Assembly (NCBI RefSeq): GCF_014822185.1
Contig: NZ_QVLR01000098.1
Span: forward strand, 62,001 to 126,000
From: Azoarcus sp. Aa7
GTDB taxonomy: Bacteria > Pseudomonadota > Gammaproteobacteria > Burkholderiales > Rhodocyclaceae
DNA: 64,000 nt
Direction of reading: 5' to 3'
Notes under the pieces: model-generated
Seen by the model: only the letters and a program-made list of their open reading frames with translations
What the model was told of the DNA's origin: nothing
Databases searched by the model: none
In this document: positions 76 through 19,901 of the stretch, piece by piece
Position numbering within the stretch: the stretch's first letter is position 1
Layout: each line of letters opens with the position of its first letter
Made by a program: the position numbers and the translations under genes

Positions 76-262
76 TTCGCGGCTTCCTTTCCTTTCTTGC
101 AATTTTGGCATAACGGCCAAGATGCTCAAGGATGGAACGACGCGTCAATGCGATGACTGCAATTTCCGTGAAGATGACAACGACTGCGACGAGATAGGCG
201 CTCCAGACGTACAGGCCGTCCCCGCCCATCGCCCAGAATTCGCTCCAACTGCCCCAGTTCAT
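56..262 (-). CDS. ccmD: CcmD, heme exporter accessory protein
   Basis: A 68-residue protein beginning MNWGSWSEFWAMGGDGLYVW, with one hydrophobic segment (about residues 18-40) followed by a basic tail rich in R and K. Size, the early aromatic Trp/Tyr-rich stretch and the single membrane span fit CcmD, which in System I holds heme-loaded CcmE with CcmC and helps release it from the CcmABCD complex. The ATG at 260-262 overlaps the ccmC stop by 4 bp (ATGA), which fixes this start over an in-frame upstream Met. Identification rests mainly on context and topology because CcmD sequences are short and variable. Confidence 0.82.
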   Translation of the reverse strand: MNWGSWSEFWAMGGDGLYVWSAYLVAVVVIFTEIAVIALTRRSILEHLGRYAKIARKERKPRNEDSRF

Positions 263-2191: not shown

Positions 2192-2233
2192 TGCGGACTC
2201 CTGGGCATGCATGTTGTTGACTGCAAATACGAC

Positions 2234-2893
2234 TTACTGACCCGTGCGGGCGACCGGGCCGTCCTTCTTCTTCGAGTGGCACAGTCGGCACTCGGACACC
2301 GGGAAGGCAACCTTGCCGTGGCATACGCCGCACTTCTGCCCGAGAAGGATGGCCGCCATGCTGATCTGGTTGGCGCCCTTTTGCGGGATGAAGATTGCGG
2401 GGTGACAGTTGGAGCAGTCAAGCCACTCGGTGTGCTGCTTGTGCGGGTAGACGACGTCCGGCATCGATCCCTTGACTTCGCGGACGATGTTCAGATCCAT
2501 TACGACCGGTACCGCGTTTGCATCCACACGGTCCCAGCGCGGGTTGATCGCGCGATCTTCGAGGGCCTTGACCCAATTGACGCGGTTGCCGGCGTTGCTA
2601 CGGGGAAGCGTTTCGAAGGCGGACAGCGGTGGCATCAGCGCTGCGGTGCCTTCGCTGGCGGGGTCGTGGATGCCGTCCTGCGACGGGGGCAGGTTGCGCT
2701 GATTGGCCGGCTTGAGCAGGCGGTTGAAGCGGTTGACGTCGGTCGCGGGGGCGGCTGCAGCCGGTGCGGCCGCCGGGGGCGCGGCCGGGGTAGCCGCTGG
2801 CTTGCCCTTGGCGTCCTGGGCAATGGCAGGCGCCGAGCCGAACAGGGCGGCGGCGAACACGGTCAGGAGCAGGGTTGGAATACGGCGGGTCAT
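2234..2893 (-). CDS. triheme c7-type cytochrome, long form
   Basis: 219 residues. A signal peptide (about residues 1-26, cleavage near AIAQ) is followed by an Ala/Pro linker (about 28-52) and a C-terminal triheme domain. Heme motifs: CSNCH at 160-164, CGVCH at 188-192, CRLCH at 202-206, with extra His (PHKQH) before the first motif as likely distal ligands. This spacing is that of the c7/c3-like triheme domain of periplasmic electron-transfer proteins. Its start overlaps the stop of the preceding triheme gene by 4 bp. It is a clear paralogue of the protein at 9913-10569 (shared INPR, EWLDCSNCH, CGVCHG, AFP motifs). Confidence 0.9.
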   Translation of the reverse strand: MTRRIPTLLLTVFAAALFGSAPAIAQDAKGKPAATPAAPPAAAPAAAAPATDVNRFNRLLKPANQRNLPPSQDGIHDPASEGTAALMPPLSAFETLPRSNAGNRVNWVKALEDRAINPRWDRVDANAVPVVMDLNIVREVKGSMPDVVYPHKQHTEWLDCSNCHPAIFIPQKGANQISMAAILLGQKCGVCHGKVAFPVSECRLCHSKKKDGPVARTGQ

Positions 2894-3321
2894 TTCTTGC
2901 TACCTCCTTGCCCGACGGGAACTGCCAGTTTCTGGATGGTGCTTTCGTGCACTTGCGTGGGGGTGTTGGGTTTGCCGGAATGGCACAGGTCGCAGTTCTC
3001 GACCGACCAGGCGACTTCGCCGTTGTGGCATGCGCCGCAGAACTGGCCGTCAATGATCTTCAGCATCGTGATCTCGTTGCCGCCCGCCTTGAACTGGAAG
3101 CCGAGGTCCGCGTGGCAGACCTTGCAGCGGAAGCGGATCCGGTGGAACCAGTGCGGAAAGATCGCTGGCCGCATGCCGGCCGCGTCGGCATAGTTGTTGA
3201 TGACGATGTCGCCGTACTCGGCGCGGCTGTCGGACGGGGTCCACAGCGTGATGGCCACTACGGCAAACAGCAGCGCAGTGAGCCCACGACGGACTCTTGT
3301 TACCCACGGGACCTGCTTCAT
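2890..3321 (-). CDS. triheme c7-type cytochrome, short form
   Basis: 143 residues with a signal peptide (about 1-34, cleavage near SRAE) and a compact triheme domain: CKVCH at 66-70, CGACH at 95-99, CDLCH at 110-114. His-rich FPHWFHRIRFRCKVCH gives likely axial ligands. It is nearly the same protein as the one at 9518-9916: both share AGMRP, FPHWFHRIRFRCKVCH and AWSVENCDLCHSGK. It heads a three-gene unit with the long triheme cytochrome and the helical secreted protein. Role by family: periplasmic electron transfer. Confidence 0.92.
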   Translation of the reverse strand: MKQVPWVTRVRRGLTALLFAVVAITLWTPSDSRAEYGDIVINNYADAAGMRPAIFPHWFHRIRFRCKVCHADLGFQFKAGGNEITMLKIIDGQFCGACHNGEVAWSVENCDLCHSGKPNTPTQVHESTIQKLAVPVGQGGSKK

Positions 3322-3693: not shown

Positions 3694-4341
3694 CTAGTGC
3701 TTACCGGGGGGCGGTTCAGGGGCTTTCTGCCTTTCCGCTTGATTCTGCTGAAGCTCCGAGCGCCATTCCCACAGTGCTGCCTCCGCCCGCGGCCGGAATG
3801 GGTCGTCCATCGGCGCGAGGTGGAGGTAGGCCTGCATGGCGCCCATCGCGCCGGGCCGGTCACCGAGTTCGTCGAGGGTTGTCGCGAGCCCGTAGTACGC
3901 ATTGACCTGATCACGCCGCAATTCGATTGCCGATTCGAAAAAATCGCGAGCCTGTTTCCATTGCTCGAGTCCGATCAGCGCGAACCCCATATTCACGTGA
4001 GCTTCGGGAAGGCGGGGGGCCAGGGTCAGTACCTGATGAAACGCCGTGAGTGCATATTCATACTGACGCATCTGAAGCATCGCGACGCCCTGCTCGAATC
4101 GCGACCGAACGTCGTTCAGCGTTGCATCGGCGGCCGAGGGCGGGCGGGGCTTCGCCCTGAGCAGGTCCGCGTATGCGAGGCGTGCCTGGTGGGGGATCCC
4201 ACGGGGCGGGGTCGGATCCAAGGCCAGCAGGGCGCCGAGGCCCAGGGTCGCAAGTACCGTGACGGCTATTGCGCGGCGGCGAACATCGCGGCGGCTGCGG
4301 GAGAGCTGTGCCGGGAGGTCGGGGCTGTGTGTGTTCTGCAT
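3694..4341 (-). CDS. membrane-anchored TPR protein
   Basis: 215 residues beginning MQNTHSPDLPAQLSRSRRDV. An N-terminal basic stretch and one transmembrane segment (about 22-42) are followed by a periplasmic part with at least two TPR-like helical hairpins (ALTAFHQVLTLAPRLPEAHV, ARDFFESAIELRRDQVNAYY), typical of protein-protein scaffolds, and a Gln/Pro-rich tail. The ATG at 4339-4341 overlaps the preceding COX1-like gene by 76 bp; no later start keeps the membrane anchor. As last gene of the ResB-CcsA unit it could act like the TPR assembly factors (CcmH/CcmI, NrfG) that hold apocytochromes for heme ligation; that is inference. Confidence 0.78.
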   Translation of the reverse strand: MQNTHSPDLPAQLSRSRRDVRRRAIAVTVLATLGLGALLALDPTPPRGIPHQARLAYADLLRAKPRPPSAADATLNDVRSRFEQGVAMLQMRQYEYALTAFHQVLTLAPRLPEAHVNMGFALIGLEQWKQARDFFESAIELRRDQVNAYYGLATTLDELGDRPGAMGAMQAYLHLAPMDDPFRPRAEAALWEWRSELQQNQAERQKAPEPPPGKH

Positions 4342-6394: not shown

Positions 6395-6395
6395 G

Positions 6396-7475
6396 TCATG
6401 CGTCCCACGGTTTTGCTGCGAATCTTTGCCAAAAATGTACGCCCAGACTGGCGATGGCCACAATGCAGGCGGCGAGCAGCCACGGCAAGGTCCAGTCGTA
6501 GAACACGCGATACCCCATCCAACTGCGCAGGCCGTCGAATTCGAGGCGACCGTCGGGCAGCTCGATCGAGTCGCCCGGGTGCATCTCGTGGCGCTCGCTG
6601 CCGATGCGTACGATCAGTTTGTATCGTTCAGGCAGACGGAAACTGGTGTGGCGCTCGGGATCGAGTACGACCTCGTCGAAGTCGAGCATCACCCATACGG
6701 GCACGCTGCTGGCAGGAGGCGTCCATTCCGCTGCCTGGCTGTATTGATTGCCGGGGTATGGAGGCAGCTGTACCGACCCGTACATCGCCTCGCCGGCCTT
6801 TGGCAGCCAGCGGAACGTGGGGGCGAAGCCCTTGTTGAAGGTCGTGTAGAAACGGTAGTTTTCGACTATCAGCGGGTCCTGATCGCCGATCTCCGCTTCA
6901 TGCCAGTGGCCCTGCCTGTCCGCCCACGCAACCAGGTTTTGCGTGGCCCCCCGTTGCAGTCCGGGGGCATACGCGATCGTGAATCCCTTATTGACGAAAC
7001 TGACCTCCGGCAGGTTTCCGGCATGCCACGGACCCTGCTCGGAGACCGCCAGAACGCCATCGAAGGCGGTGCCGACGGTAACTCCCGCGTGTCCGTTCAG
7101 ATATGTCAGCCGGCCTGCCGCGACGAGTAGCAGCAGAACGATGAGGCAGAGGTGAAAGACCAGCAGCGCGATCTGACGCCTGAATACGCCATTGGTTGCA
7201 ACGGCAGCCAGCAGGTTGAGGGCGAGCAGCAGCAGGGGTATGACCAACGGCCAGGTTCGCGCCCCCTCCCGAAGATAAGCGAAGGCCGTTCCCGCTCCGA
7301 GCAGCGCGATCAGCCACGGCGTGAGATGCAGGGATGCCAGCTTGCGCAGAACGTTTGCTGGAGGGGGTACGGATCGGGCCTGCCCGTCGTCACTCCTGTT
7401 GAGGGGGGAAGGCTGCTGCCGCGAGTCCCATGCTGTCGTCGTGTGCCCGCGTTCCGTTGCTCCGTCGCCAATCAT
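6396..7475 (-). CDS. resB: ResB (CcsB)-family cytochrome c biogenesis protein
   Basis: 359 residues starting at an ATG that overlaps the preceding NHL gene stop by 4 bp (ATGA). Layout fits ResB: N-terminal transmembrane segments (HLTPWLIALLGAG, WPLVIPLLLLALNLLAAVA, IALLVFHLCLIVLLLLVAAG), a large periplasmic domain (about 110-320), and a final membrane span (LPWLLAACIVAIASLGVHFW). Partner of CcsA in System II, where it is thought to present the apocytochrome and keep its cysteines reduced. Immediately upstream of ccsA, as in many betaproteobacteria. It has a low-complexity N-terminal extension of about 45 residues. Confidence 0.88.
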   Translation of the reverse strand: MIGDGATERGHTTTAWDSRQQPSPLNRSDDGQARSVPPPANVLRKLASLHLTPWLIALLGAGTAFAYLREGARTWPLVIPLLLLALNLLAAVATNGVFRRQIALLVFHLCLIVLLLLVAAGRLTYLNGHAGVTVGTAFDGVLAVSEQGPWHAGNLPEVSFVNKGFTIAYAPGLQRGATQNLVAWADRQGHWHEAEIGDQDPLIVENYRFYTTFNKGFAPTFRWLPKAGEAMYGSVQLPPYPGNQYSQAAEWTPPASSVPVWVMLDFDEVVLDPERHTSFRLPERYKLIVRIGSERHEMHPGDSIELPDGRLEFDGLRSWMGYRVFYDWTLPWLLAACIVAIASLGVHFWQRFAAKPWDA

Positions 7476-8563
7476 TCCGAGTCGCCCTTGGCTCCGCCAA
7501 GGTATTGAAAGATCGTTACGCGGCCGTTGAACGTGTCGGCAACGAACACCCGGTTGAACGCATCGACCCATACTCCGGACGGTAGGTAAAAATTGCCGGT
7601 ACCCTGGCCGACGCCCCCGATCGGCATCAGGAAGTCGCCGGTTTCGTTAAACACGAGCAAGTTGTCGTAATAGGATTCCACCACGTAAATGTTGTTTTCG
7701 CTGTCGACGCCGACTCCCTTGGGGCGGACCAGATTGCCATAGTACAGGCCACGTTTTCCCACGATCTCGGGGGGCGAATCGCCGGCCAGAGGCAGTATCT
7801 GCACGCGGCTGTTCATGGTGTCGGTAACGTAGAGATTTCCGCCGCCAATCGCGAGATGTGTCGGGAAGTTGAACTCGCCAGGAGCCTCCCCCCGTTCGCC
7901 GATCACCCGATCAAGGCGCCCGTCGGCGCCGAAAACCTTGATGTCGTGGGCGTAAGTGTCGGCGACGTAAAGCAGCCCGGTGGCCGGGTCGCGCGCCAGT
8001 CCCGTCGGACGTTGAAGCACCCCCGCCCCGATCGGAGGCAATGGATTTCCTTGCGCGTCAAGGTGGGCTACGAGTTGCAACTCCGCATCCGCAACCCAGA
8101 TACCTCCTCCGTCGGCAAGTGCTACGCCGATCGGAGCGACAAAGCGGCGCGTGTCAACCGCATGATCCCAGACCTTCAGTTCTCCTGCGGGTTTGTCAAA
8201 TACGAAAACGGCCGCACGGCTTACATCGGTGACGAAAATCCGCTCTTGCGCGTCCGCGACAACGGCTTGCGGTCGTTGAAGCACATTGGGCTTTTCCTCC
8301 TCGAAGAGACCGACGGCCCAGGCAAGAAATCCGACGAATCCGGTCGCAGTATCTTCGCGCACGAAATTTTCTTCGCCGGTAAGCTGGCCCGCGAACTGAT
8401 AACGGGGGATCTCCGGTTCCGCAGGCCACATGAGCCGCTTCCCTTCCGGGGCGTCGAGCAGGCCGTAGTGGAGGCGCGCCGGTATTGACTGCGTCGCACA
8501 GCCGCTCAGTGCGATCGAGAGAGTCAGCACCAACCAGTAAAAACGGGAGTGACTGGGCTTCAA
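7472..8563 (-). CDS. NHL-repeat beta-propeller lipoprotein
   Basis: 363 residues from a TTG start (TTGA overlap with the preceding gene, GGAGA 5 nt upstream), giving MKPSHSRFYWLVLTLSIALS then Cys22: a clear lipobox (ALSGC) for anchoring to a membrane. The mature part has repeated NHL-type blades (PTGLARDPATGLLYVADTYA, PTHLAIGGGNLYVTDTMNSR, PKGVGVDSENNIYVVESYYD, PSGVWVDAFNRVFVADTFNG), expected to make a six-bladed propeller. NHL propellers are protein or ligand binding scaffolds; no catalytic residues are evident. It sits between a second NHL protein and resB in one coupled unit with the triheme cytochromes. Confidence 0.87.
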   Translation of the reverse strand: MKPSHSRFYWLVLTLSIALSGCATQSIPARLHYGLLDAPEGKRLMWPAEPEIPRYQFAGQLTGEENFVREDTATGFVGFLAWAVGLFEEEKPNVLQRPQAVVADAQERIFVTDVSRAAVFVFDKPAGELKVWDHAVDTRRFVAPIGVALADGGGIWVADAELQLVAHLDAQGNPLPPIGAGVLQRPTGLARDPATGLLYVADTYAHDIKVFGADGRLDRVIGERGEAPGEFNFPTHLAIGGGNLYVTDTMNSRVQILPLAGDSPPEIVGKRGLYYGNLVRPKGVGVDSENNIYVVESYYDNLLVFNETGDFLMPIGGVGQGTGNFYLPSGVWVDAFNRVFVADTFNGRVTIFQYLGGAKGDSE

Positions 8564-9510
8564 GGCGTTCTCCGTTGCGGCGGAATAATCGCATAGACAC
8601 CGATCCGGCCTGCAGGACCATCGGAAATATATGCGCGATAGACGTCGATAGAGATCGCCGTGATTTCTATCAGCCCCAGCTGTCGCGGTTCGATCGACGC
8701 AAGCAGTTGTCCGCTGGCGAAGACTTTCAGGCGGTTGTCGCCGCGGTCGACGACCCACGTACGGCCATGGGTGTCGATCGCCAGGTCTGCGGGGGACATC
8801 AGTGTGCTTTCACCATAACGGGCGATGATCGCGCCTTCGCGGTCGAAATCGATGATGCAGCGGCACTGAGGATCGATACCGGTAACCCGCTCGCGACTGG
8901 CGGCCAGCAATGTCGCGCCCGGGAACTCCCCGGCAAAGCCGTCGCCACGTCCGACCAGCGGTTCGCTCATCCTTCCCGACGGATGGAATGCAAAAACGCC
9001 GCCTGCTGCGTCGGATATCCAGACGCGGTTGAGCGTCGGTTCGATGACGATGTCTGCGGGCTGGAGGATGTCATATTTGGCGCTGAAGCCCGCGATGCGA
9101 CGGCCGTCGCGCGTCAGCCGGGTGATCTCGCCCCGGTCCGGACGCAGCACGTACACGCTCCCGTCCGGTCCTGCCTTCAGGCGTGTCCCGGGCAGGGGGG
9201 CGATCTCGCCCAAGGGCGTCACCGCCTGGGTGACCGTGTCTACGCGCAGCAGGAGACGTTGGGCGTTGTCCGCCACATAGAGGTCCGGTCCGTTTGCGGC
9301 GACCGCAGACGGGTGAACCAGTTTGATGTAGGGACCGAGAGGCGTCTGACCATGTACGGGACTGGCTGGAGCGGAGAAGCCGCCTGTGATGACACTCTGC
9401 GGCATGAGCAGCTCGTTTGCCCCTCCGTGCGGTGCGGCATCGACGGGGGCTTGTGCGTGTACCCCAAGGACGACCGACAGCAAGACTCCCCCGATTATCT
9501 TCTTCCACAT
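8560..9510 (-). CDS. secreted NHL-repeat beta-propeller protein
   Basis: 316 residues starting MWKKIIGGVLLSVVLGVHAQ, a Sec signal peptide with cleavage near HAQA; no lipobox. Propeller-type blades are more degenerate than in its neighbour but recognisable (PSAVAANGPDLYVADNAQRL, PADIVIEPTLNRVWISDAAG, PADLAIDTHGRTWVVDRGDN). Two Cys close together (DPQCRCIID) could form a disulfide or bind metal; there is no CxxCH. The start lies 7 bp after the short triheme gene and its stop overlaps the next NHL gene, so it is coupled to both. Likely extracytoplasmic scaffold for the cytochromes. Confidence 0.83.
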   Translation of the reverse strand: MWKKIIGGVLLSVVLGVHAQAPVDAAPHGGANELLMPQSVITGGFSAPASPVHGQTPLGPYIKLVHPSAVAANGPDLYVADNAQRLLLRVDTVTQAVTPLGEIAPLPGTRLKAGPDGSVYVLRPDRGEITRLTRDGRRIAGFSAKYDILQPADIVIEPTLNRVWISDAAGGVFAFHPSGRMSEPLVGRGDGFAGEFPGATLLAASRERVTGIDPQCRCIIDFDREGAIIARYGESTLMSPADLAIDTHGRTWVVDRGDNRLKVFASGQLLASIEPRQLGLIEITAISIDVYRAYISDGPAGRIGVYAIIPPQRRTP

Positions 9511-9517
9511 GATTTGC

Positions 9518-9916
9518 TCACCAGCGGCCCGGGCCAAGGGTTTCATGCCCGCCGAAAATCCCCGGCGGCAGCCCCGCCTTGCCCGAGTGGCACAGATCGC
9601 AATTTTCGACAGACCATGCAGTTTCTCCGTCATGACATGCGCCGCAAAAGCGGCCGTCGATGATGTCTGTCATCTTGATCTGGTTTGCTCCCGCGCGCAT
9701 CTTGAAGCCCAGTTCGGCGTGGCAGACTTTGCAGCGAAAACGGATGCGATGAAACCAGTGCGGAAAAACAACCGGCCGCATTCCGGCCGCCTCGGCCATT
9801 CTGTTCAAAACGACGTCAGCATACTCCGCGAATACTGGCGGCGCAGCGAAAATTACGGACAGCTCGAGCAGTATCGCGGCCACGATCAATACGAGGGGGC
9901 GCCTCCGCTCGGTCAT
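9518..9916 (-). CDS. triheme c7-type cytochrome, short form (second copy)
   Basis: 132 residues: signal peptide (about 1-30, cleavage VFAEY) and a triheme domain with CKVCH at 62-66, CGACH at 91-95 and CDLCH at 106-110. Paralogue of the protein at 2890-3321, identical over several blocks around the hemes. Start ATG overlaps the preceding long-form triheme gene by 4 bp. Here the short form follows the long form, the reverse of the order at 2.2-3.3 kb. Role: periplasmic electron carrier, probably feeding or draining the outer-membrane barrel encoded upstream. Confidence 0.92.
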   Translation of the reverse strand: MTERRRPLVLIVAAILLELSVIFAAPPVFAEYADVVLNRMAEAAGMRPVVFPHWFHRIRFRCKVCHAELGFKMRAGANQIKMTDIIDGRFCGACHDGETAWSVENCDLCHSGKAGLPPGIFGGHETLGPGRW

Positions 9917-10569
9917 TTGCCCTTGCCCTCCTTTCTGGGCGCCGACGGCCGCTCGTTCGTCGGCGCAGGGGGTGGGGCGGGGGTGGGCGCTGCCGCCTTG
10001 GCCGCTTCTTCCCGCTCCAGTTCCGCCAGGGCGTCGGCGCGCTTCACGCTGTGGCAGCGCGCGCACTCGGTCAGCGGAAACGCCACCGCACCGTGGCACA
10101 CACCGCACTGCTCGCCCTGGAGTATCAGAAACATGCTTATCTTGGATGCGCCGCGCTGTTTCTTGAACAAGTGATCATGGCAATTGCTGCAGTCGAGCCA
10201 CTCGTTATGGATGCTATGCGGGAAGCGCACAACCGGCATCCCGCCATTGAGATTCAGCAGAACATCCTTGTCGTACTTTTCGCTGACGAGCGGCTTGCGG
10301 AGACTCGCACGCGGGTTGATCTGGCCTTCCTTCAAAGCATGCACCCAGCGCACCTGGTTTCCGGCATTGTCAGGCGACAGCGGGAGCAGGGCGTCGGCCG
10401 GCTGTTGCAGTATCCTGACTGCCGGACCGCTCGGGTCGCGAAGGCCGTCTTTGGCGAGCGGTGCCCAGACCCGTTCATCGGCCGGCGATGGCCGCGCGAA
10501 GGCAAGCATCAGGATGAGCAGGCACTTCGCACAACGAGTGGAGGGGACGCGGGGCAGGCGAACGAACAT
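9913..10569 (-). CDS. triheme c7-type cytochrome, long form (second copy)
   Basis: 218 residues from the ATG at 10567-10569; a TTG 21 nt upstream is possible but adds nothing. Signal peptide about 1-30 (CLLILMLAFA core). Heme motifs CSNCH at 127-131, CGVCH at 155-159, CARCH at 169-173, preceded by FPHSIH for axial ligands. A C-terminal Lys/Glu then Ala/Pro-rich tail (about 180-218) is absent from the copy at 2234-2893, which instead has its Ala/Pro linker at the N-terminus. Same family as that copy. 108 bp downstream of the barrel gene and translationally coupled to the short triheme gene. Confidence 0.9.
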   Translation of the reverse strand: MFVRLPRVPSTRCAKCLLILMLAFARPSPADERVWAPLAKDGLRDPSGPAVRILQQPADALLPLSPDNAGNQVRWVHALKEGQINPRASLRKPLVSEKYDKDVLLNLNGGMPVVRFPHSIHNEWLDCSNCHDHLFKKQRGASKISMFLILQGEQCGVCHGAVAFPLTECARCHSVKRADALAELEREEAAKAAAPTPAPPPAPTNERPSAPRKEGKGK

Positions 10570-10677
10570 GATGACGGCGCACCGGTTCAAGCGGATCGGT
10601 CCGGAAGATTATCGGATTTAGTCGGTCCGCTGTGCCGAAGGTTGCATCTGACGGTTTCGTTCGGCGGTCAGGCGCCA

Positions 10678-13134
10678 TCAGAAGGAGCCGAAGTCGCGGC
10701 TGACCCTGAAGAATATGAGCTGATTGCGCCGCCCTTCGATTTCGGCGACCCGGTACTGAAGCTCCGTATCGAGTCGTCCGATCCGGTAAAGCAGACGCTG
10801 GTCGAGCTCCAGCGTCGCGCGATCCTGTTCCCTCGAGGCATCGGCATTGCCGAAGCGGCGCGAATCGTCGCGGCTGGTATTGGCGCGGAAATCGAGCCGA
10901 TAGCGAAGCCCCCGGACGCCCATGACGCGCCGGTGGCCATATCCAAGTCCCCCGCCGAGGCCGGTACTGCCGCCGCGCGTGGAAGTGTCCACCAGTACCG
11001 GACGGCCGAATTCGTCGCTGACGACGACCACTTCATTGCGGTCGGACGACTGCCGCGACATCTGCCAGGTCAGGTTCGAGTTGAGCTCGGAGTAGGCGTT
11101 GATGCGCCAGAATCCCGTCAGCTGGACGTTCAGCATCTGAAACGACGACGTGGTTTCGCCCGTTGTCCGGCTGTCGGAAAGGTTGGCGCTCAAGTACCCT
11201 GACAGCGCCTCGCCGGAATTCGCCTGGAGACTGACGCTGGCCCCGTGGGTAAGTGACGTTGCGTCCGAGCTTCCGATTCCGGTGGCCCTCGATTTCGTGA
11301 GCGATTGATTCAGGCTGCTGTACAGGGTTGTCTTTTCTGGGAGTTGCCAGCTTCGGGTCAACGTGTGCCCGAGCGAACCGCTGACGGTGCGGGCGGAATC
11401 CCCGTCTCCGGTCGTGCTGTTCGACGCCGAGAGCGATGAGAACCAGACGTAGTCGAAATTACCGAATCGCAGCGGGTCTCCGCTATAGCTTGCGCCAATC
11501 GATTCGTTCGAGCTCATTTGGTTGCTGGTGTCGAAATTCAGCCCTGCCGAGCCGAACAGACTCAAGTTGCGGCTCGCCTGATAGCTGAGGCTTGCCGCGG
11601 CGCCGAATGTGCGGTTGTCAAACGTGGTGCCGTCAAAGGTGTTGTTCGTCTGGAAATAGCGGACGTTCGCCGAGCCCCGCCACTTCGATTCAGAAGGTGC
11701 CCAGTTCGCGTAGCTGAAAATCTGGGCACTCTGCGTCTTTGCATTCAGGGTTGCCCCCCCGGTCTCCAGGTCGAACTGTTGGCCGGTAAAGCTGGCGCTG
11801 GTGTTGAATTGGAGCTCCTCGCTGTAGGTGAAGCTGTGCCCGCCTCCAACGAAGAAACTCGTAGTCGTCTGATCGACGGCCTGACTCTTCGAGAAGTCGC
11901 CGCTGATGTTGAAGGACTGTCGGTCAAGTGTGTTCGAGAAGTTGCCGTACACCCTATCGACGGTGTCGGAGCCGAAATTTCCGGTGATCTCGCTGCGGTC
12001 GTAGCCACCCGCCGCCGACCATTGTCCGATCTGCGGGCGGTAGTTCTGGCGAAGTGCCAGACGGCGCTGCTGAATGTTGGAATCCGAAAAGCTGCCATCG
12101 CTGCGACTGTCGGCGAGTGACAGTGATGCAGAGAACGGGAAGCGGCTCTGTGGAAAGACATTCAGCGATCCCGATCCGGTAACGGACGTCCCCATCAGAT
12201 TGTTCGAAGCCGCTCCTCCTGAATCCTGCGAGCGCACCGTGGTGAGGGCAAAGTCGCCGGATACCAGGGCGATGTATGGTTTCCATATATAGGAACTGGC
12301 TCGCAACCGCGCCTCATAGACCTGGCTGGTCGAACCGCTCGAATTATCCGACCGATAATTTCGCAAACCGGCGGAAAGTGCCCCGCCCCAGCGAATTGGA
12401 GCGAGTCCCCAGCCAAGATTGCGCGACGCGGCGCTGGCGGGGGGAGGTTCCGTGCCCGCCACCCGCGGTTGGCTCGGGAGCAGATCGGTATCCAGTTCGT
12501 CCGCGGGAAGGAAATCGTCGCTGCCGACAACCTTGGCATCGGCAGTTCCTTGTCTGGGTGTGCCGGTGTTCTGGTCGGAGGCAGGAGGCAAGGTCGGCGT
12601 GCCCGCCGCTGCGACCTTCAAATTCCGGGCAATATCGACGGACCGGGCGGTGGGGTCGTTCTTCTCGATTGCAATTCTGCGCCGCGGAAGTGCAGCCGAT
12701 TCCCTTCCGGAAAATCGATCTTCCGGTCGCGGCCCCGTTGGAGGGATCGAAGGGGCCGTGCCGGACGCCGGGGAGGAGGGTAGGGTCGGCAACGGAGGGA
12801 GGGCAGGAGCGTTGAGCGGGAGCTGAAAATTCCACGCCAGCGTCAGCGGCGCCAGCTCGGGATTCGTCTGTTCCGTGTCAGGCGGGAGGGCTGCCGATTC
12901 GGTCGCGCCTGACTCGCCGTCGCGCTGCAGGCTGGCGAGAATGGTTGTCAAGCGCAGACGCGGGTGAGCGGGTGATTCCGCTGGAGCCGCTTGTCCGGCA
13001 ATCGCCGGCATGGCTGTCGCTCCAAGCAGAATTCCCCCACACAACGGCGGAATCCCTCGACGGCAAACGTCAAGGAGGAAGCGCGCCGCGTGGTCGGCGG
13101 TGACCGCTTTCGGGGCAGCTCCGATGGCCGACAT
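10678..13134 (-). CDS. large outer-membrane beta-barrel protein (candidate cytochrome-conduit porin)
   Basis: 818 residues. A signal-like segment (about 27-47, ending AMPAIAGQA) is followed by a long Pro/Ser-rich periplasmic region (about 48-225) and a barrel (about 230-818) of alternating polar/hydrophobic strands with Tyr/Phe girdles (SAGLRNYRSDN, YEARLRASSYIW, LNVQLTGFWRINAYSELNSN). It ends in Phe (RVSRDFGSF), the usual outer-membrane insertion signature. The length would give roughly 26-30 strands, as in porins that enclose multiheme cytochromes (MtrB, Geobacter conduit barrels), though sequence motifs of those were not seen. 13 bp downstream of a SurA/PpiC-type isomerase and just upstream of triheme cytochromes. 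Confidence 0.75.
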   Translation of the reverse strand: MSAIGAAPKAVTADHAARFLLDVCRRGIPPLCGGILLGATAMPAIAGQAAPAESPAHPRLRLTTILASLQRDGESGATESAALPPDTEQTNPELAPLTLAWNFQLPLNAPALPPLPTLPSSPASGTAPSIPPTGPRPEDRFSGRESAALPRRRIAIEKNDPTARSVDIARNLKVAAAGTPTLPPASDQNTGTPRQGTADAKVVGSDDFLPADELDTDLLPSQPRVAGTEPPPASAASRNLGWGLAPIRWGGALSAGLRNYRSDNSSGSTSQVYEARLRASSYIWKPYIALVSGDFALTTVRSQDSGGAASNNLMGTSVTGSGSLNVFPQSRFPFSASLSLADSRSDGSFSDSNIQQRRLALRQNYRPQIGQWSAAGGYDRSEITGNFGSDTVDRVYGNFSNTLDRQSFNISGDFSKSQAVDQTTTSFFVGGGHSFTYSEELQFNTSASFTGQQFDLETGGATLNAKTQSAQIFSYANWAPSESKWRGSANVRYFQTNNTFDGTTFDNRTFGAAASLSYQASRNLSLFGSAGLNFDTSNQMSSNESIGASYSGDPLRFGNFDYVWFSSLSASNSTTGDGDSARTVSGSLGHTLTRSWQLPEKTTLYSSLNQSLTKSRATGIGSSDATSLTHGASVSLQANSGEALSGYLSANLSDSRTTGETTSSFQMLNVQLTGFWRINAYSELNSNLTWQMSRQSSDRNEVVVVSDEFGRPVLVDTSTRGGSTGLGGGLGYGHRRVMGVRGLRYRLDFRANTSRDDSRRFGNADASREQDRATLELDQRLLYRIGRLDTELQYRVAEIEGRRNQLIFFRVSRDFGSF

Positions 13135-13147
13135 TAGACTCTATGGA

Positions 13148-14215
13148 TTACTTCGTTCCCGCCGACGTCTTCTTGGCGAGTGCCGAGTAGCGTTGTGTAT
13201 TCAGCTCGATCTTTGCCTTCTTGCGCAGCTGATCGCGCAGGTTGTGCCATGCTTCGTCGCTCAGATCGCGCGCGAGAAGGTCTGCCGCGCGCGCTTTGAC
13301 GGTTTCGAAGTCATGGTGTTTTGGCGGTTGCAAGGCATCGTAATGGAACAGCGCGATTCCTTGAAGCACGCGTGTCGGAGGCGAGAGATCGCCGGGCTTC
13401 ATGGCGTCGATTTTCTCCTGAATTCCTTCCGGCAGCATGCCTTTGTGCATATAACCCAGATCGCCGCCATTGGCGGATGATTCATGAGCCGAGCGGTCGC
13501 GTGCCAGCTGGGCGAAATCCGCTCCCCCTTCGGTGAGCTTCAGTCGCAGCGCTCCGGCCGCGGTTTCGGCCTCGTCCCATGCCTTGGTCGGGGACGACGG
13601 ATCGACCGGCAGCAGAATAAGCGAGATGCGCATCTTCTCCGGCTCCGTGAATTTTTCCGGATGCGCCTTGTAGTACGCGAGCACCTTGTCCTGCGACGGC
13701 GGCGCGATGTTGCGCGCGGCTGTCTCGATGGCGGCCAGCATGTCGTCTTCTTCAAGGCGCTGGCGCAGTGGGGGCAGTATCTGGGCACGTTCCTGCTGCC
13801 ACCGTGCGCTCGCTGCGTAACGTTTCTCGTAGTTGGCGATCTTCTCGTCAACTACTTTCGCGTCGGGCTTCATGCCCCGTCGCTTGATTTCCTCGAGCAG
13901 CAGAATCCGGTCGATCATGTTGTTGGCGACGTCGCGCACCAGTTGCTCGATCTCGCCTTCCGGAGGAGTGCCGTGATAGAACTTTTGCCGGATCGCTTCC
14001 CGGACGGACGTGTCGAATTCCGCCGAGCTGATCACCTTGCCATTGACAACGGCCGCGAACGGAGGCGACACGTGCGGGTCGGCTGCCCGCTGTGAGCTTG
14101 TCGCCGTTGCCGGAGGCTTTGCCGCGTCGGTCTTTGCACTATCGCCGGCATGGGCGCCGAAGGAGACGAGCGTACAGGCGAGAGCGCCGGTAAGGGTGCG
14201 AGCGAAAATTTTCAT
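13148..14215 (-). CDS. periplasmic SurA/PpiC-type peptidyl-prolyl isomerase
   Basis: 355 residues beginning MKIFARTLTGALACTLVSFG, a Sec signal peptide. An N-terminal chaperone-like helical region (about 45-160; VVNGKVISSAEFDTSVREAI) precedes one parvulin domain (about 180-285) with the typical FAQLARDRSAHESSANGGDL and MLPEGIQEKIDAMKPGDLSP blocks. Such proteins help fold outer-membrane barrels and secreted proteins. It is coupled to the large barrel gene (13-bp gap), so it is probably its dedicated chaperone. Start chosen at the ATG that gives the signal peptide; an upstream in-frame start would prefix 27 non-signal residues. Confidence 0.88.
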   Translation of the reverse strand: MKIFARTLTGALACTLVSFGAHAGDSAKTDAAKPPATATSSQRAADPHVSPPFAAVVNGKVISSAEFDTSVREAIRQKFYHGTPPEGEIEQLVRDVANNMIDRILLLEEIKRRGMKPDAKVVDEKIANYEKRYAASARWQQERAQILPPLRQRLEEDDMLAAIETAARNIAPPSQDKVLAYYKAHPEKFTEPEKMRISLILLPVDPSSPTKAWDEAETAAGALRLKLTEGGADFAQLARDRSAHESSANGGDLGYMHKGMLPEGIQEKIDAMKPGDLSPPTRVLQGIALFHYDALQPPKHHDFETVKARAADLLARDLSDEAWHNLRDQLRKKAKIELNTQRYSALAKKTSAGTK

Positions 14216-14303
14216 GACGGATTCTAGTCTTGCCGGTCTGATTGCGTCGATTACGGGGTGTGTCGAAATTTGACATGATTCGTCCGATTCCGACAAAAAG
14301 AAA

Positions 14304-14328
14304 GGTCAGGCGACCATGTCACCTGACC
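14304..14328 (-). terminator. hairpin terminator after the tetraheme cytochrome gene
   Basis: Perfect 7-bp stem GGTCAGG / CCTGACC with a partly paired loop, 66 bp beyond the stop of the minus-strand tetraheme gene. Reading the minus strand the stem is followed by TTTCTTTTT; the plus strand also has five T after the stem, so it could act in both directions. Confidence 0.75.
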
Positions 14329-14393
14329 CTTTTTCCGACCGCGACGGAGCCGTTACGCTATGGTGCGAGCGACCCCGCGCGCGGTCTTTGCCC

Positions 14394-15230
14394 TTACTTG
14401 GTGTGGCAAGCCAGGCAGATTTTGCTGCCGGAGGTGGTCACACGCATGAAGCTGACGCCGTCGGTGCCCTTCGGTTCGACGTGGGGATCGTGGCAGGACG
14501 CGCACTCGACCGACGGGCCCTTGACCGAGCCACCGGAGAAGTCACGGGTGTAGAGGATGATGTCGGTCTTGGAGCGGACGCTGTCCACCGTGCTCGTGTC
14601 GATCCAGAACACCTGCGCGCTGTTGATCGTCTTCGTCTTCAGGCCGGCGGTGGAACCCGTGAAGTCGGTGTCGCGGCAGCTGCCATTCACGGTCGTGCCG
14701 GTGCCGGTGATGCCGCCGCCGCAGTACTGGATGCCGATCGGGTGATCGTTGCGGAGGTTCTGGCCGAGGTTCGCGATCGCATTGCCGGTCACGCCGATGA
14801 TCTCACCGCCTGCACTCCAGACGTAGGCTTGGTTCGCGCCGCCCGACGTGTAGCCGCCGCTGCCCGGGGCGTTGACCAGGTTGTCCATCGCCTGGGTGCC
14901 GTCGTGGCACGACAGACAGGCGGCGGAGACGGAACCGACGCCGAGCACTTCGCCGTCGATCGTCGACGAGTTTGCCGTCGAATAGGTCGTGTAGCCGCTG
15001 GCGGCGGGCAGGCCCTTGTTCCACAACGGAGCCTCGACGCTGGTGTTTGCAGCGTGCGGCGTGTGGCAGAAGACGCAGATCTGCTCGGTGCTGGTCTGCT
15101 TGTTCGGACCGGTGCCCGTGGAGGTCAGGTTGTGCTTCGTGTTGGAAATACCCGTCAACGCGGCACTCGCGGCGCTTGCGACGAGCGCGAGCGACGCGAG
15201 AGCGAGTGTCTGCTTGATGATTTTTTTCAT
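14394..15230 (-). CDS. secreted tetraheme cytochrome c
   Basis: 278 residues: signal peptide (about 1-24, cleavage near ASAA) and four heme motifs CVFCH 52-56, CLSCH 105-109, CASCH 243-247, CLACH 272-276. The N-terminal block ISNTKHNLTSTG then QICVFCHTPHAANT is shared with the cytochromes at 16759-17517 and 37037-39625, and belongs to the doubled-CxxCH cytochrome families. A long Gly/Thr/Ser-rich stretch (about 115-235) separates hemes 2 and 3. Two further Cys (170, 185) are not in CxxCH and may form a disulfide. Single-gene unit with its own AT-rich leader and terminator. Probably periplasmic or extracellular electron carrier. Confidence 0.9.
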   Translation of the reverse strand: MKKIIKQTLALASLALVASAASAALTGISNTKHNLTSTGTGPNKQTSTEQICVFCHTPHAANTSVEAPLWNKGLPAASGYTTYSTANSSTIDGEVLGVGSVSAACLSCHDGTQAMDNLVNAPGSGGYTSGGANQAYVWSAGGEIIGVTGNAIANLGQNLRNDHPIGIQYCGGGITGTGTTVNGSCRDTDFTGSTAGLKTKTINSAQVFWIDTSTVDSVRSKTDIILYTRDFSGGSVKGPSVECASCHDPHVEPKGTDGVSFMRVTTSGSKICLACHTK

Positions 15231-16678: not shown

Positions 16679-16758
16679 GGGGTGGCCGGAAAGAATGGAG
16701 GGTCTCGACAATGGTAACGTGTGACGGAAAATCGTTAGCAGCTTCCGTGCGAGGGGCG

Positions 16759-17517
16759 CTACTTGATGTGGCAGGTCATGCAAAGTTCGCTCGGGTTGCT
16801 TTCCGCGCGCAGGAAAAGCGGACGAACCGTGTGAGGGTCGTGGCAGCTCGCGCATTCGACAAAGGGAATTTCCATCTGATCCTCGGCGTCGATCCGCACG
16901 TAAAGCGGCACGTCGAGGCGTCCGCGCTGAACCGAGGCGGCGTCCTTCGATACCCACCAGACGGGACGGTTGTCGATGACGCCGCGGGTGGCCTGGCGGA
17001 ATCCGTCGTCGAATTTCAGCTGCTTTGCGGTATTGATGAGCTTGCCTCCCCGTTGCAGGTCCTCGCGGATCTTCTTGCGCTGCTCGGGTGTCAGGGCGCC
17101 TCGATATGGCACTGCGAACGGGTGGTCTATGCTGCCCCCGGCGATGCCGAATGCCTGCGACGAGTCATGGCACGACAGGCAGGCGATGGACTGGGAGCCG
17201 ACCGCTTCGCTGCCTTCCTTGCCGATGCGGCCGATGTCATCGAACATCAGGAAGGTGTTGTCCTTCGGTACGGAGCTTTGCCACTTCGGCTGGGCGGCGT
17301 CGTCCTGGTTCGTGTCGCTCGGCGTATGGCAGAAGACGCAGATCTGGCGGGGGTCTACGTTCTGGGTGGTGCCGTACTGGATCAGGTTGTGCTTGCTGTT
17401 CCGCATGTCGATCCGCTGCGCTTGCGCAGGGGCAGTGCCGATCAGGGTGCTGGCGACCATCAGTGCGCTTAGCGCGGCAATGAGGCGGCAGGAGGCGAGG
17501 GGGCGCGCGGTTGGCAA
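16759..17517 (-). CDS. secreted tetraheme cytochrome c
   Basis: 252 residues from a TTG start (AAAGAG about 7 nt upstream), giving a good signal peptide to about residue 34 (APAQAQ). Heme motifs CVFCH 60-64, CLSCH 113-117, CASCH 222-226, CMTCH 246-250, the same number, order and spacing type as the protein at 14394-15230, including the RNSKHNL block before heme 1. Between hemes 2 and 3 it has a charged helical segment rather than the Gly/Thr-rich stretch of its paralogue. Likely periplasmic or surface electron carrier working with the neighbouring NHL lipoprotein. Confidence 0.9.
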   Translation of the reverse strand: MPTARPLASCRLIAALSALMVASTLIGTAPAQAQRIDMRNSKHNLIQYGTTQNVDPRQICVFCHTPSDTNQDDAAQPKWQSSVPKDNTFLMFDDIGRIGKEGSEAVGSQSIACLSCHDSSQAFGIAGGSIDHPFAVPYRGALTPEQRKKIREDLQRGGKLINTAKQLKFDDGFRQATRGVIDNRPVWWVSKDAASVQRGRLDVPLYVRIDAEDQMEIPFVECASCHDPHTVRPLFLRAESNPSELCMTCHIK

Positions 17518-17593: not shown

Positions 17594-17896
17594 CTAGCGG
17601 GACTGCGAAACCATGTATTCGACAGCGGCCCGAACCTGGCTGTCGGCGAGACCCGGATTGCCGCCCTTGGGCGGCATGCCGCCCTTGCCGCGGAGTGCCG
17701 ACTGCTGCAGGGCCTCGAGTCCAGCCGGAAGGCGAGGAGCCCAGGCGTTGCGGTCGCCGAGAATCGGGGCGCCAGCCACCCCGGTTGCATGACAGGCGCG
17801 GCAAATTTGAGTATAAACCGCCTTGCCGTCGGTGGCCGATACTTCGGTTGCCAGGACAAGGAACGCCAGGCCGACCGGTGCAAGAATGTATTTCAT
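17594..17896 (-). CDS. small monoheme class I cytochrome c (c5-like)
   Basis: 100 residues: signal peptide (about 1-21, cleavage VSATD) and one heme motif CRACH at 32-36, with the sixth-ligand Met in GKGGMPPKGGN (about residue 74). Size, the GAPILGD stretch and the GGMPPKGG loop are typical of cytochrome c5, a soluble electron shuttle. It diverges from the diheme cytochrome gene across a 146-bp region and is the first gene of the minus-strand cytochrome series. Confidence 0.9.
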   Translation of the reverse strand: MKYILAPVGLAFLVLATEVSATDGKAVYTQICRACHATGVAGAPILGDRNAWAPRLPAGLEALQQSALRGKGGMPPKGGNPGLADSQVRAAVEYMVSQSR

Positions 17897-18042
17897 TTTG
17901 GTCCCGTCGATAAATCGCGAAGCTGGCCCGAGGCGGTAAGCATGGTTGGATCGGTAATCGAAGCAACCGACATGCCAGTATCGCGCATCGGTCGGTTCGG
18001 TTCTTGCATCAAGGCTGCAGTTTTTCGACTCAGGGGTATCTT
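17897..18042. promoter_or_regulatory. divergent promoter region between cytochrome genes
   Basis: 146 bases between the c5-like gene (minus) and the diheme gene (plus); it must hold both promoters. No FNR-type or other recognised operator could be confirmed by eye. AGGGG before the GTG at 18043 serves as ribosome site. Confidence 0.5.
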
Positions 18043-18897
18043 GTGAATCAGAACAAGCAATTCACGCCGGTCCTGCGCGCATGCGCTATCGGTTTCGGTG
18101 TGGCGCTGAGCTTCGGCGCCAGCGGCAGCACGATCAAGGCCGACGTGCTTTATCACGAATACTGTTCGGTGTGTCATGGCGACCGCGGCGACGGGAACTC
18201 CCGCGCCATGAAAAGCCTGAATCCGCCGCCCAGGGACCTGACGAAGGCGGGAGCTGCCCTGCCGCGCGACTACATCCTGCACGTGATTACCCACGGCAAG
18301 CCGAATACGGCGATGGTGGGTTACAAGTCCCGCCTGAACGCCGAGCAGCTCGCGGCGCTGGCCGACTACGTGCATAACGATATCGTGAATCGTGGGGCGG
18401 CCATCTCCGCCGGCATGATCAAGGGCATTTCCGGCACGTCGGGAACGACCGGTGGCGGTACGGCCCCGGCGGTGCCCGCTGCGGGCGGTGGAAGCGCCCC
18501 CGTCCCCCCGATCGCAGCTCCCGTTCCGCCCGTGAAGCCGGTGGCGCCCGAGGAGCGCGCGGACATGGCTGCGCCGTATCCGTCGGGACTGAAGGGTGAG
18601 GCGGCAAAGGGCAAGGAGTTCTACGACAAGAATTGTGCCGAATGCCATGGGGTGAAGGGGGATGGCCAGGGGCCGCGTGCCTACTTCATTCGTCCGGTGC
18701 CGCGTGATTTCCTCCATGAGCGTTCCCGTCTGACGCTGAACCGTCCGGCGATCTACGCTGCCGTCTTCTTCGGACGCAATGGCACCGAGATGCCTGCCTG
18801 GAGCAAGGTGCTGAGCGAGCAGGAAATTGCCAACGTTTCCGAGTACGTGTTTCAGACCTTCATCCGTTCGGGTGACAAGGCAGCCAAGGCGAAATGA
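18043..18897 (+). CDS. diheme cytochrome c (two class I domains)
   Basis: 284 residues from GTG at 18043, supported by AGGGG 6 nt upstream; a TTG start 39 nt earlier is less likely. Signal peptide to about residue 30. Two class I domains: first heme CSVCH at 41-45 with MVGYKSRLN as the Met loop, second heme CAECH at 198-202 with TEMPAWS as the Met loop. They are joined by a long Gly/Ala/Pro linker (about 130-170). Overlaps the next gene by 4 bp (ATGA). Periplasmic electron transfer is expected; the flexible linker suggests shuttling between partners. Confidence 0.9.
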   Translation: MNQNKQFTPVLRACAIGFGVALSFGASGSTIKADVLYHEYCSVCHGDRGDGNSRAMKSLNPPPRDLTKAGAALPRDYILHVITHGKPNTAMVGYKSRLNAEQLAALADYVHNDIVNRGAAISAGMIKGISGTSGTTGGGTAPAVPAAGGGSAPVPPIAAPVPPVKPVAPEERADMAAPYPSGLKGEAAKGKEFYDKNCAECHGVKGDGQGPRAYFIRPVPRDFLHERSRLTLNRPAIYAAVFFGRNGTEMPAWSKVLSEQEIANVSEYVFQTFIRSGDKAAKAK

Positions 18898-19901
18898 GTC
18901 GTAGTATCTGGGTGGGAGGGCTGGTTGCGGTGTTGTTCGCGATCCAGCCCGTTGTTCCGGCGATCGCCGCCGATGCACGCAATGACAGCGCCCGGCACGA
19001 GGCCGGGCGCAAGATCTACAATTTCCGCTGCTATTTCTGTCACGGTTATTCCGGCGATGCGAAGACCCTGGCAGCGACCTATCTGACCCCGAAGCCGCGC
19101 GATTTCACGAAGGACGTGGAGCAGTCGATCGCGAAGGAGCAGATGATTGCGGCCGTACGGGACGGCAAGCCCGGTACCGCGATGAAGGGGTTCAAGGGAA
19201 TCATCTCCGAGAGCGATATCGAGAAGGTGGTCGATTTCGTGCGCCTGGAGTTCATTCGCAACAAGGCGGTGAACACGCGCTATCACACGCCGGAGAATGG
19301 GTGGCCGAACCATGAACGAAACAGGCTTGCCTTCCCTTTTGCGACAGGGCAGATACCGCTAGATCGCGCGTGGGAGGCGCTCAGCCCGTCCGAACAGAAG
19401 GGCAAGCGGCTGTTCCTGACGACATGCATCTCGTGCCACGATCATGCGCGGACCGAGGATCCCGGCCCGGTGTGGGGCGGGCGGCCGTTGTCCTATCCGC
19501 GCAATCATTTCGATCCGGGTGATTTTTCGGCGCAGCCGCCGACCAGGGCGGATGCGATCGCTAGCGCCAGTCCTTATGCATTGCACGATGTGGTGCCGCA
19601 GGTGTCGGGGTTGTCGCCCACGGAAAAGCGGGGTGAAACGCTGTTTCAGACGAACTGCGCGTTCTGCCATGGTGCGACGGGTACTGGACGGAACTGGATC
19701 GGAAGCTTCATGGAGCCGCATCCGCGTGACCTGACCGACCCGAAGTTCATGCAGAACATGACACGTCAACGTCTGGCGCACACAATCCGTGAAGGCTTGC
19801 CGAATACATCGATGCCCGCATGGAAATCGGTGCTCAAGGACGACGAGATCCAGGCGATCATTGCCTACGTGTCACGTGTCTTTCATCCGGTGAAGCAGTA
19901 A
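18894..19901 (+). CDS. triheme cytochrome c (three class I domains)
   Basis: 335 residues with a signal peptide (about 1-26, cleavage AIAAD). Heme motifs CYFCH 46-50, CISCH 178-182, CAFCH 255-259. Domains 1 and 3 carry matching GKPGTAMKGF and GLPNTSMPAWKS Met loops and share the PKPRDFT / PHPRDLT blocks, so the protein arose by internal duplication; the middle heme lies in a shorter segment. Coupled to the diheme gene upstream, with which it probably forms a periplasmic electron chain. Confidence 0.88.
   Translation: MSRSIWVGGLVAVLFAIQPVVPAIAADARNDSARHEAGRKIYNFRCYFCHGYSGDAKTLAATYLTPKPRDFTKDVEQSIAKEQMIAAVRDGKPGTAMKGFKGIISESDIEKVVDFVRLEFIRNKAVNTRYHTPENGWPNHERNRLAFPFATGQIPLDRAWEALSPSEQKGKRLFLTTCISCHDHARTEDPGPVWGGRPLSYPRNHFDPGDFSAQPPTRADAIASASPYALHDVVPQVSGLSPTEKRGETLFQTNCAFCHGATGTGRNWIGSFMEPHPRDLTDPKFMQNMTRQRLAHTIREGLPNTSMPAWKSVLKDDEIQAIIAYVSRVFHPVKQ

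What the first reader, a model, noticed from the sequence alone, without database searches (positions are those of the whole stretch)
9913..14215. Candidate outer-membrane electron conduit: barrel, dedicated isomerase and triheme wires
A SurA/PpiC-type isomerase (13148-14215) is followed at 13 bp by an 818-residue barrel ending in Phe, then by a long and a short triheme cytochrome, two NHL proteins and the ResB/CcsA heme ligase genes. The barrel is far larger than a general porin (392 residues here) and has a 200-residue periplasmic extension. This layout resembles porin-cytochrome conduits used to move electrons across the outer membrane, but the cytochromes are c7-type trihemes plus tetra- and 11-heme proteins rather than the usual decahemes. 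No such arrangement is known to me as a named system.
Basis: partly seen in the sequence, partly recalled or inferred. Interest (0 to 1): 0.78.

Follow-up and report, generated by a model that had tools for sequence, protein, structure and literature searches.

The report
Probable Uet-type cytochrome nanowire cluster
A bacterium of the genus Aromatoleum carries a conserved gene set that most likely builds electron-conducting protein filaments on its surface, with a dedicated pore and folding helper, linking two systems described separately in the literature.

Summary
In detail: PPIase (13148-14215), 13 bp, 818-aa barrel, two trihemes, two NHL proteins, ResB/CcsA. The arrangement is not nameless: by gene content and order it is the Uet cluster reported in Tenderiales and Gallionella. 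Here it lies in an Aromatoleum genome. In 369 genomes of its class, 39 of 39 with a near-full UetA have the barrel 0.3-1.8 kb away; 39 of 40 with the barrel have UetA. The 11-heme protein (UetJ, 37037-39625) begins with an OmcE module (8 His invariant in 29 of 29). A second tetraheme paralogue has lost one His. The same genome has five MtrB/PioB porins, each beside a decaheme gene; this barrel matches neither that family nor that layout. Best reading: an OmcE-type nanowire system whose barrel and PPIase export and anchor the wire, trihemes feed it, and UetJ ends it. Polymerisation and export are inferred, not shown.

The parts
14394..15230 (-). UetA-type tetraheme, OmcE homologue; proposed filament subunit
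   Evidence: phmmer to 7TFS (OmcE) E=5e-33 and 9YUQ 2.5e-23; profile E=4e-40; eight His kept in 81 of 81 homologues upstream of a PPIase
13148..14215 (-). UetB-type periplasmic PPIase (SurA/PpiC-like)
   Evidence: Pfam Rotamase 3.1e-14, SurA_N_3 1.3e-8; downstream of UetA in 75 of 76 named loci with room
10678..13134 (-). UetC-type outer-membrane beta-barrel, 818 aa, about 28 strands, disordered 1-225
   Evidence: AF2 model; no Pfam/NCBIfam for this protein; 69 of 70 named loci with room; 40 of 369 class genomes
9913..10590 (-). long triheme c7-type cytochrome
   Evidence: PF14522; TIGR04257 60.4 bits, cut-off 40
9518..9916 (-). short triheme c7-type cytochrome
   Evidence: PF14522; TIGR04257 68.9 bits, cut-off 40
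8560..9546 (-). NHL-repeat protein
   Evidence: Pfam NHL 4.6e-7
7472..8563 (-). NHL-repeat protein, possible lipoprotein (start inferred, 4-bp overlap)
   Evidence: Pfam NHL 2.4e-27
6396..7571 (-). ResB (c-type cytochrome maturation)
   Evidence: PF05140
5582..6463 (-). CcsA-type cytochrome c assembly protein
   Evidence: PF01578
4266..5585 (-). conserved hydrophobic protein of unknown family
   Evidence: no Pfam or credible PDB relative; syntenic in relatives
3694..4341 (-). TPR protein
   Evidence: Pfam
2890..3321 (-). second short triheme
   Evidence: 3 CxxCH; 91-100% identical in eight same-genus loci, 81% in the ninth
2234..2893 (-). second long triheme
   Evidence: 3 CxxCH; syntenic
1259..2212 (-). 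coiled-coil-like protein, possible UetF
   Evidence: no Pfam family; family member downstream of UetA in 55 of 58 long named loci, drawn between triheme pairs
259..1032 (-). CcmC/CcsA-like cytochrome c assembly protein
   Evidence: PF01578
15527..16678 (-). NHL-repeat protein, possible lipoprotein, between the two tetrahemes
   Evidence: Pfam NHL 1.7e-29; lipobox-like motif
16759..17517 (-). second OmcE-like tetraheme paralogue, lacks one distal His (HTPS for HTPH)
   Evidence: 7TFS E=1.3e-14; same His absent in 34 of 34 relatives of this kind; own group in the tree
17594..17896 (-). monoheme cytochrome c
   Evidence: 1 CxxCH; syntenic
18004..18897 (+). divergent diheme class-I cytochrome
   Evidence: Cytochrome_CBB3; pair on the opposite strand in 58 of 80 named loci
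18894..19901 (+). divergent triheme class-I cytochrome
   Evidence: Cytochrome_CBB3; same 58 of 80
37037..39625 (-). UetJ-type undecaheme: OmcE module plus seven more hemes
   Evidence: 36% identity to the window UetA along all 278 residues; profile to 7TFS E=1.3e-35; 11 CxxCH in 29 of 29, window included

Best explanation
This is a Uet-type cluster, and it works as a self-contained OmcE-type cytochrome-nanowire system. Proposed path: UetA (14394-15230) is heme-loaded in the periplasm with help of the embedded ResB/CcsA, chaperoned by the adjacent PPIase, and passed out through the wide barrel, where it polymerises by the OmcE mechanism (one heme of each subunit ligated by a His of the next). 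The two pairs of periplasmic trihemes carry electrons to the base of the wire. UetJ, an OmcE module fused to a seven-heme domain, ends the wire or docks it to the donor/acceptor. The His-deficient tetraheme paralogue is a base or cap adaptor. NHL propellers stabilise or tether. Shown: homology, ligand conservation, near-constant pairing and synteny, barrel fold (predicted), UetJ fusion, paralogue groups. Inferred: polymerisation, export through the barrel, roles of UetJ, the paralogue and NHL proteins. Direction of electron flow: unknown.
For: OmcE homology with all 8 heme-ligand His. Pairing: near-full UetA (E<1e-70) in 39 of 369 genomes, all 39 with the barrel on the same strand and contig, gap 320-1842 bp; barrel in 40. 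Gene order kept, where the contig is long enough, in named loci from Beta- and Gammaproteobacteria, Magnetococcales and a MAG labelled Nitrospirae. UetJ begins with an OmcE module, 8 His invariant in 29 of 29. Barrel unlike MtrB/PioB by sequence while the genome has five PF11854 porins each beside a 10-heme gene; 9 of 30 cluster-bearing genomes have no PF11854 match. Geobacter's osc operon is described as having folding, secretion and morphology factors for OmcS wires (PMC13194489 passage).
Against: No filament of a Uet protein is mentioned in anything I read. Homology of the barrel or PPIase to Geobacter Osc proteins was not tested (no Geobacter genome reached). Lumen-facing strand positions are slightly less, not more, conserved than lipid-facing ones (mean entropy 2.55 vs 2.34 bits, p=0.04; sides assigned by hydrophobicity), which does not support a specific passenger. 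Foldseek's second best match is MtrB (6r2q_B, E=3.3e-8, TMq 0.30), as a conduit reading would like, though TonB-dependent barrels score alike. The UetJ model is unusable (pLDDT 48). One locus (L112) has UetA and 6 kb downstream without PPIase or barrel, and eleven genomes have weaker OmcE-like matches and no barrel, so OmcE-like proteins can exist without it. The physiological role of cytochrome filaments is itself disputed (PMC11077965, start of abstract in a listing).
Confidence: 0.55

Rival explanations
1. Static porin-cytochrome conduit, as the Uet papers and the first reader propose: the barrel insulates one or more trihemes or part of UetJ across the outer membrane, and UetA/UetJ act as surface cytochromes without polymerising.
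For: Uet is called a porin-MHC complex in PMC10734462 (passage). A 28-strand barrel (Calpha diameter c.49-56 A by formula) is wider than one of 26 strands. MtrB is Foldseek rank 2.
Against: Neighbouring cytochromes have 3-4 hemes, unlike the decaheme beside each of five PF11854 porins in this genome; no PF11854 match in 72 homologues; the near-constant partner is an OmcE homologue with every heme ligand kept.
Confidence: 0.27
2. Secretion without wires: barrel and PPIase export UetA and UetJ as soluble or surface-bound monomers or short oligomers that shuttle electrons.
For: Gives the same pairing; the osc passage names secretion factors; nothing here shows that UetA polymerises.
Against: Conservation of all eight His, including whichever one is supplied across the OmcE interface to heme 2 (PMC12203936 passage), in 81 of 81 favours the polymer.
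Confidence: 0.13
3. The cluster serves something other than extracellular electron transfer, for example periplasmic electron storage, with the barrel as a bystander.
For: No physiology is known to me for the window strain; Aromatoleum species are denitrifying aromatic degraders (recalled).
Against: Dedicated outer-membrane barrel in tight linkage; the Occ genes of Ca. Dechloromonas occultata, which include an undecaheme, are reported in Mn(III)-dependent extracellular transfer (PMC13264449 and PMC8258643 passages).
Confidence: 0.05

Closest known systems
Uet (undecaheme electron transfer) cluster uetABCDEFGHIJ, Ca. Tenderia electrophaga and Gallionella
   Same: Tetraheme, PPIase, beta-barrel, c7 trihemes, NHL proteins and undecaheme (passages); in other named loci the order tetraheme-PPIase-barrel-tri-tri-coil-tri-tri-NHL-NHL-multiheme agrees with the order of the Uet letters, if letters follow gene order.
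   Different: Four trihemes rather than three. In Aromatoleum the second triheme pair and coil protein lie behind inserted ResB/CcsA and other genes, UetJ is about 20 kb away, and an extra NHL and a His-deficient tetraheme precede UetA. Tenderia proteins were not compared directly.
Occ cluster of Ca. Dechloromonas occultata
   Same: Undecaheme-bearing cytochrome cluster linked to Mn(III) reduction (PMC13264449, PMC8258643 passages) in a genus of the same order (recalled).
   Different: The original paper is not held; gene-by-gene identity not checked.
OmcE filament (PDB 7TFS), Geobacter sulfurreducens
   Same: UetA and the UetJ N-terminal module align with OmcE over the four hemes; all eight His of UetA have a counterpart.
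   Different: UetA is longer (278 vs 232 aa), with a longer stretch between the NDHP and CASCH motifs; no filament shown.
osc (OmcS companion) operon, G. sulfurreducens
   Same: Described set: folding (OscH), secretion (OscE, F, G), morphology (OscD) (passage); I recall OscH as a prolyl isomerase and OscD as a propeller.
MtrAB/PioAB/MtoAB porin-decaheme conduits
   Same: Large outer-membrane barrel beside c-type cytochromes.
   Different: Different barrel family, no adjacent decaheme; five porins of that family sit elsewhere in this genome.

Membership tests
Uet cluster | Tetraheme UetA next to PPIase UetB and barrel UetC | tested here: met
Uet cluster | Triheme c7 cytochromes UetDEG and NHL proteins UetHI | tested here: met
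   four trihemes rather than three
Uet cluster | Undecaheme UetJ | tested here: met
   11 CxxCH, 37037-39625, but about 20 kb away; inside the cluster in G047
Uet cluster | UetF | tested here: inconclusive
   UetF is not described in the passages read; a coiled-coil-like protein sits at the expected place in other loci
Uet cluster | Sequence identity to Ca. Tenderia proteins | not tested
   original paper not held and its sequences not reached
OmcE-type filament cytochrome | Sequence homology to OmcE over four hemes | tested here: met
OmcE-type filament cytochrome | Eight His ligands | tested here: met
   81 of 81 UetA; which His crosses the interface is not known to me
OmcE-type filament cytochrome | Polymerises into filaments | not testable with these tools
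   needs cryo-EM
osc nanowire assembly | PPIase, channel and propeller beside the wire cytochrome (partly recalled) | tested here: met
   same kinds of protein by type only
osc nanowire assembly | Homology to OscD-H | not tested
   no Geobacter genome was reached
MtrAB/PioAB conduit | MtrB/PioB-family barrel (PF11854) | tested here: not met
   0 of 72 homologues; own barrel not among the five hits
MtrAB/PioAB conduit | Decaheme adjacent to the barrel | tested here: not met
   adjacent cytochromes have 3-4 hemes; the five PF11854 porins of the genome each have a 10-heme neighbour

The most novel reading that the evidence does not exclude
The whole Uet family, so far filed as a porin-cytochrome conduit, is a nanowire secretion and wiring system: the barrel is the export and anchor pore of an OmcE-type wire, UetJ is a wire terminus made of an OmcE subunit fused to a seven-heme head, and the tetraheme that has lost exactly one ligand His is the wire's starter or cap.
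Probability: 0.42. Interest if true: 0.82.

Novelty: new member of a known kind. Interest (0 to 1): 0.6.

Why it matters
How cytochrome wires are secreted, where they are anchored and how electrons enter them are listed as unresolved in a 2025 review (PMC12307469, passages). Here is one compact, widely spread gene set in which a wire-type cytochrome, a pore, a folding helper, periplasmic carriers and a probable wire end nearly always travel together. It is present in named species (Aromatoleum tolulyticum, A. toluclasticum, A. toluolicum, Dechloromonas hankyongensis, Piscinibacter defluvii). It offers a defined list of deletions to test wire assembly outside Geobacter.

Tried and rejected
Rejected: barrel as MtrB/PioB; barrel as a known PDB family by sequence (profile best E=0.075, CymD); among 72 barrel homologues only OMP_b-brl (3) and DRY_EERY (1) matched Pfam at 0.01. 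Plasmid-borne UetA: no match. Low-scoring Shiga-toxin-subunit lines for the coil protein lie far under their cut-offs and are chance. The UetJ structure model was too poor to search. A conserved-lumen test came out against the export idea. The first iterative search timed out and was redone more simply. In one search the undecaheme and tetraheme profiles merged, so families were told apart by position, heme count and tree.

Parts given of what was held: barrel alignment A3 has 72 of the 80 long frames then in hand, window included (left out: four second copies of the same genome, L027, L035, L036, L037, and four frames of odd length, L054, L056, L080, L101). UetA alignment A4 has the window and 43 of 80 named loci. 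UetJ and PF11854 were sought in the window's genome and the genomes of 29 of the 80 named loci (the two lists differ by one). One search took only frames with exactly 4 CxxCH and under 480 codons (126); one search shows eight UetA frames left outside the 81, and these also keep all eight His. The paralogues for the tree were picked by the missing His, so 'all lack it' rests: of 45 tetraheme ORFs not found upstream of a PPIase, 34 lack the HTPH His; the 11 that keep it are, by position, five UetA at the scan match and six UetJ N-terminal pieces at locus ends. Three genomes are represented twice among the 93 loci (L024/L035, L025/L036, L027/L037). The E<1e-70 line for near-full UetA was set after seeing the list; at E<1e-20, 51 of 369 genomes match, 11 of them without the barrel.

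Full report
Observation. AlphaFold2 on 72 homologues gives a confident barrel (most of residues 248-816 at pLDDT >=90), 28 strands by my count from DSSP, with residues 1-225 at low confidence. The stretch is one piece of a longer island, 259-19901: two tetrahemes and a third NHL protein upstream, a second triheme pair, a coiled-coil-like protein and more cytochrome c assembly genes downstream.

Where it is. Among 200 relatives searched, the barrel is in 10 of 17 genomes of the genus, 6 more of the family and 2 of the order, so it is patchy. Island GC is 62% against 67.6% at 46-64 kb, but another stretch of the genome (C107) is at 63.7%, so this says little.

The unrecognised gene. The tetraheme at 14394-15230, 178 bp upstream of the isomerase, matches PDB 7TFS, which is OmcE according to PMC12954529 and PMC12203936 (passages), at E=5e-33, and a second solved chain, 9YUQ. 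With a 44-row profile the values are 4e-40 and 3e-38, and nothing else in the PDB passes 0.001. All four CxxCH and four other His (in the KHNL, HTPH, NDHP and CASCHDPH motifs) align with His of OmcE, and all eight are invariant in 81 of 81 homologues that stand upstream of a PPIase. OmcE's heme 2 is ligated by a His from the next subunit (PMC12203936, passage); I could not establish which His.

The set travels together. PPIase follows in 78 of these 80. Counting only loci with enough DNA, 75 of 76 have the PPIase and 69 of 70 the barrel; the one exception to both, L112, is a Gallionellaceae MAG with UetA and 6 kb downstream of it. Of 58 long loci, 53 also show at least three trihemes, NHL and the coil protein downstream; three of the five that fail are Aromatoleum loci with the rearrangement described here. 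In a separate draw of 369 class-level genomes the barrel is in 40 and a near-full UetA in 39; all 39 carry both on one strand of one contig 320-1842 bp apart. The fortieth barrel genome (G395) has no near-full UetA (best OmcE-like match 1.7e-27), but has a UetJ-type match on the barrel's contig; whether the contig ends there was not looked at.

Three OmcE-fold proteins. The 11-heme protein 37037-39625 begins with a module 36% identical to UetA with all eight His, followed by seven hemes. A match was found in 30 of 30 genomes asked, but in one (G089) it is only UetA-sized; the other 29, the window's included, each have a match along the protein with 11 motifs, and the eight His are invariant in the 29-row alignment. 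The profile matches only 7TFS and 9YUQ in the PDB at 0.001. The second tetraheme (16759-17517) keeps seven of the eight His; the HTPH one is absent in 34 of 34 relatives of that kind. A tree puts UetA, this paralogue and the UetJ modules in three groups (support 86/73, 98/93 and 100/98). So the cluster holds a subunit, an extended subunit and a defective subunit of one filament-type family. That is what a wire with specialised ends would need, though it can also be read as plain divergence.

Not an ordinary conduit. No homologue of the barrel matches MtrB/PioB in Pfam (0 of 72). The window's genome has five PF11854 porins elsewhere, each with a 10-heme gene beside it; 9 of 30 genomes bearing the cluster have no PF11854 match, 21 do. 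Foldseek gives generic large barrels, MtrB second, none with TM above 0.5 in the 50 rows shown of 746. Against my reading, lumen-facing positions are not more conserved than lipid-facing ones.

What is known. PMC10734462 (passages) describes Uet: undecaheme UetJ, tetraheme UetA, trihemes UetDEG, isomerase UetB, NHL UetHI, porin UetC, after Eddie et al. 2022 (mSphere, not held). PMC12575090 (passages) names uetABCDEFGHIJ in Tenderiales; PMC13386937 (passages) reports UetJ and its porin in the Leptothrix-Sphaerotilus group. The Occ cluster of Ca. Dechloromonas occultata is known to me through PMC13264449 (undecaheme) and PMC8258643 (occ genes and Mn(III)) (passages). The osc operon for OmcS wires is cited in PMC13194489 (passages); I tried Shen et al. 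2025 under a recalled DOI and it is not held. In the searches made I saw no paper that ties Uet to OmcE, but only listings and passages were read; of the four papers I read passages of all four. Eddie 2022, Szeinbaum 2020, Baquero 2023 and Shen 2025 could not be opened, and OmcE homologues are said to be known across domains (PMC12307469 passage), so I claim no priority. None of the 15 papers listed of 254 mentions Aromatoleum.

Verdict. A correct observation of a system already named, in a genus for which that one search showed no report of it. The new content is the link: the barrel's near-constant partner is an OmcE-type wire cytochrome, and the undecaheme is an extended wire subunit. I hold membership in the Uet kind as near certain by gene content, polymerisation as likely, and export through the barrel as slightly better than even.

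Noticed in passing
genome G000: C60:136083-138074, C56:98814-100766, C14:90195-92033, C57:1586-3508, C92:65648-67906: Five MtrB/PioB-family porins, each beside a 10-heme cytochrome gene: a large conduit repertoire for a genus I recall as denitrifying aromatic degraders.
   Followed up: partly
L145 10034-16629 (G000:C56) and L146 7534-9692 (G000:C107): Further OmcE-like tetraheme, 11-heme and pentaheme genes next to NHL proteins but without barrel, PPIase or triheme matches in the 18-20 kb fetched: OmcE-like plus NHL looks like a unit of its own.
   Followed up: partly
window 19960-25585: Three consecutive hydrophobic proteins with C-terminal TPR repeats beside the cytochrome island; three TPR-family frames stand at the same place in the four Aromatoleum loci L035-L038. 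Could be glycosyltransferases acting on surface proteins, untested.
   Followed up: no
window 25813-44039: Polysaccharide genes (glycosyltransferases, DegT aminotransferases, flippase, heptosyltransferase) among which UetJ lies.
   Followed up: partly
window 39873-41324: PAS-GGDEF-hemerythrin protein just upstream of UetJ on the same strand: possible oxygen- or redox-responsive c-di-GMP control of the undecaheme.
   Followed up: no
window 2890-3321: This short triheme is 98-100% identical in seven of nine same-genus loci, while the barrel of the same island is 47-61% identical in seven of the nine: unusually strong constraint.
   Followed up: no
L078 and L098: Chromatiales loci carry an extra set with 18-heme and 7-8-heme frames and NHL proteins upstream of UetA.
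   Followed up: no
PDB 9YUQ: Sixteen-chain entry of a 'putative multiheme cytochrome c' that is the second OmcE-type relative of UetA; organism and assembly not known to me.
   Followed up: no
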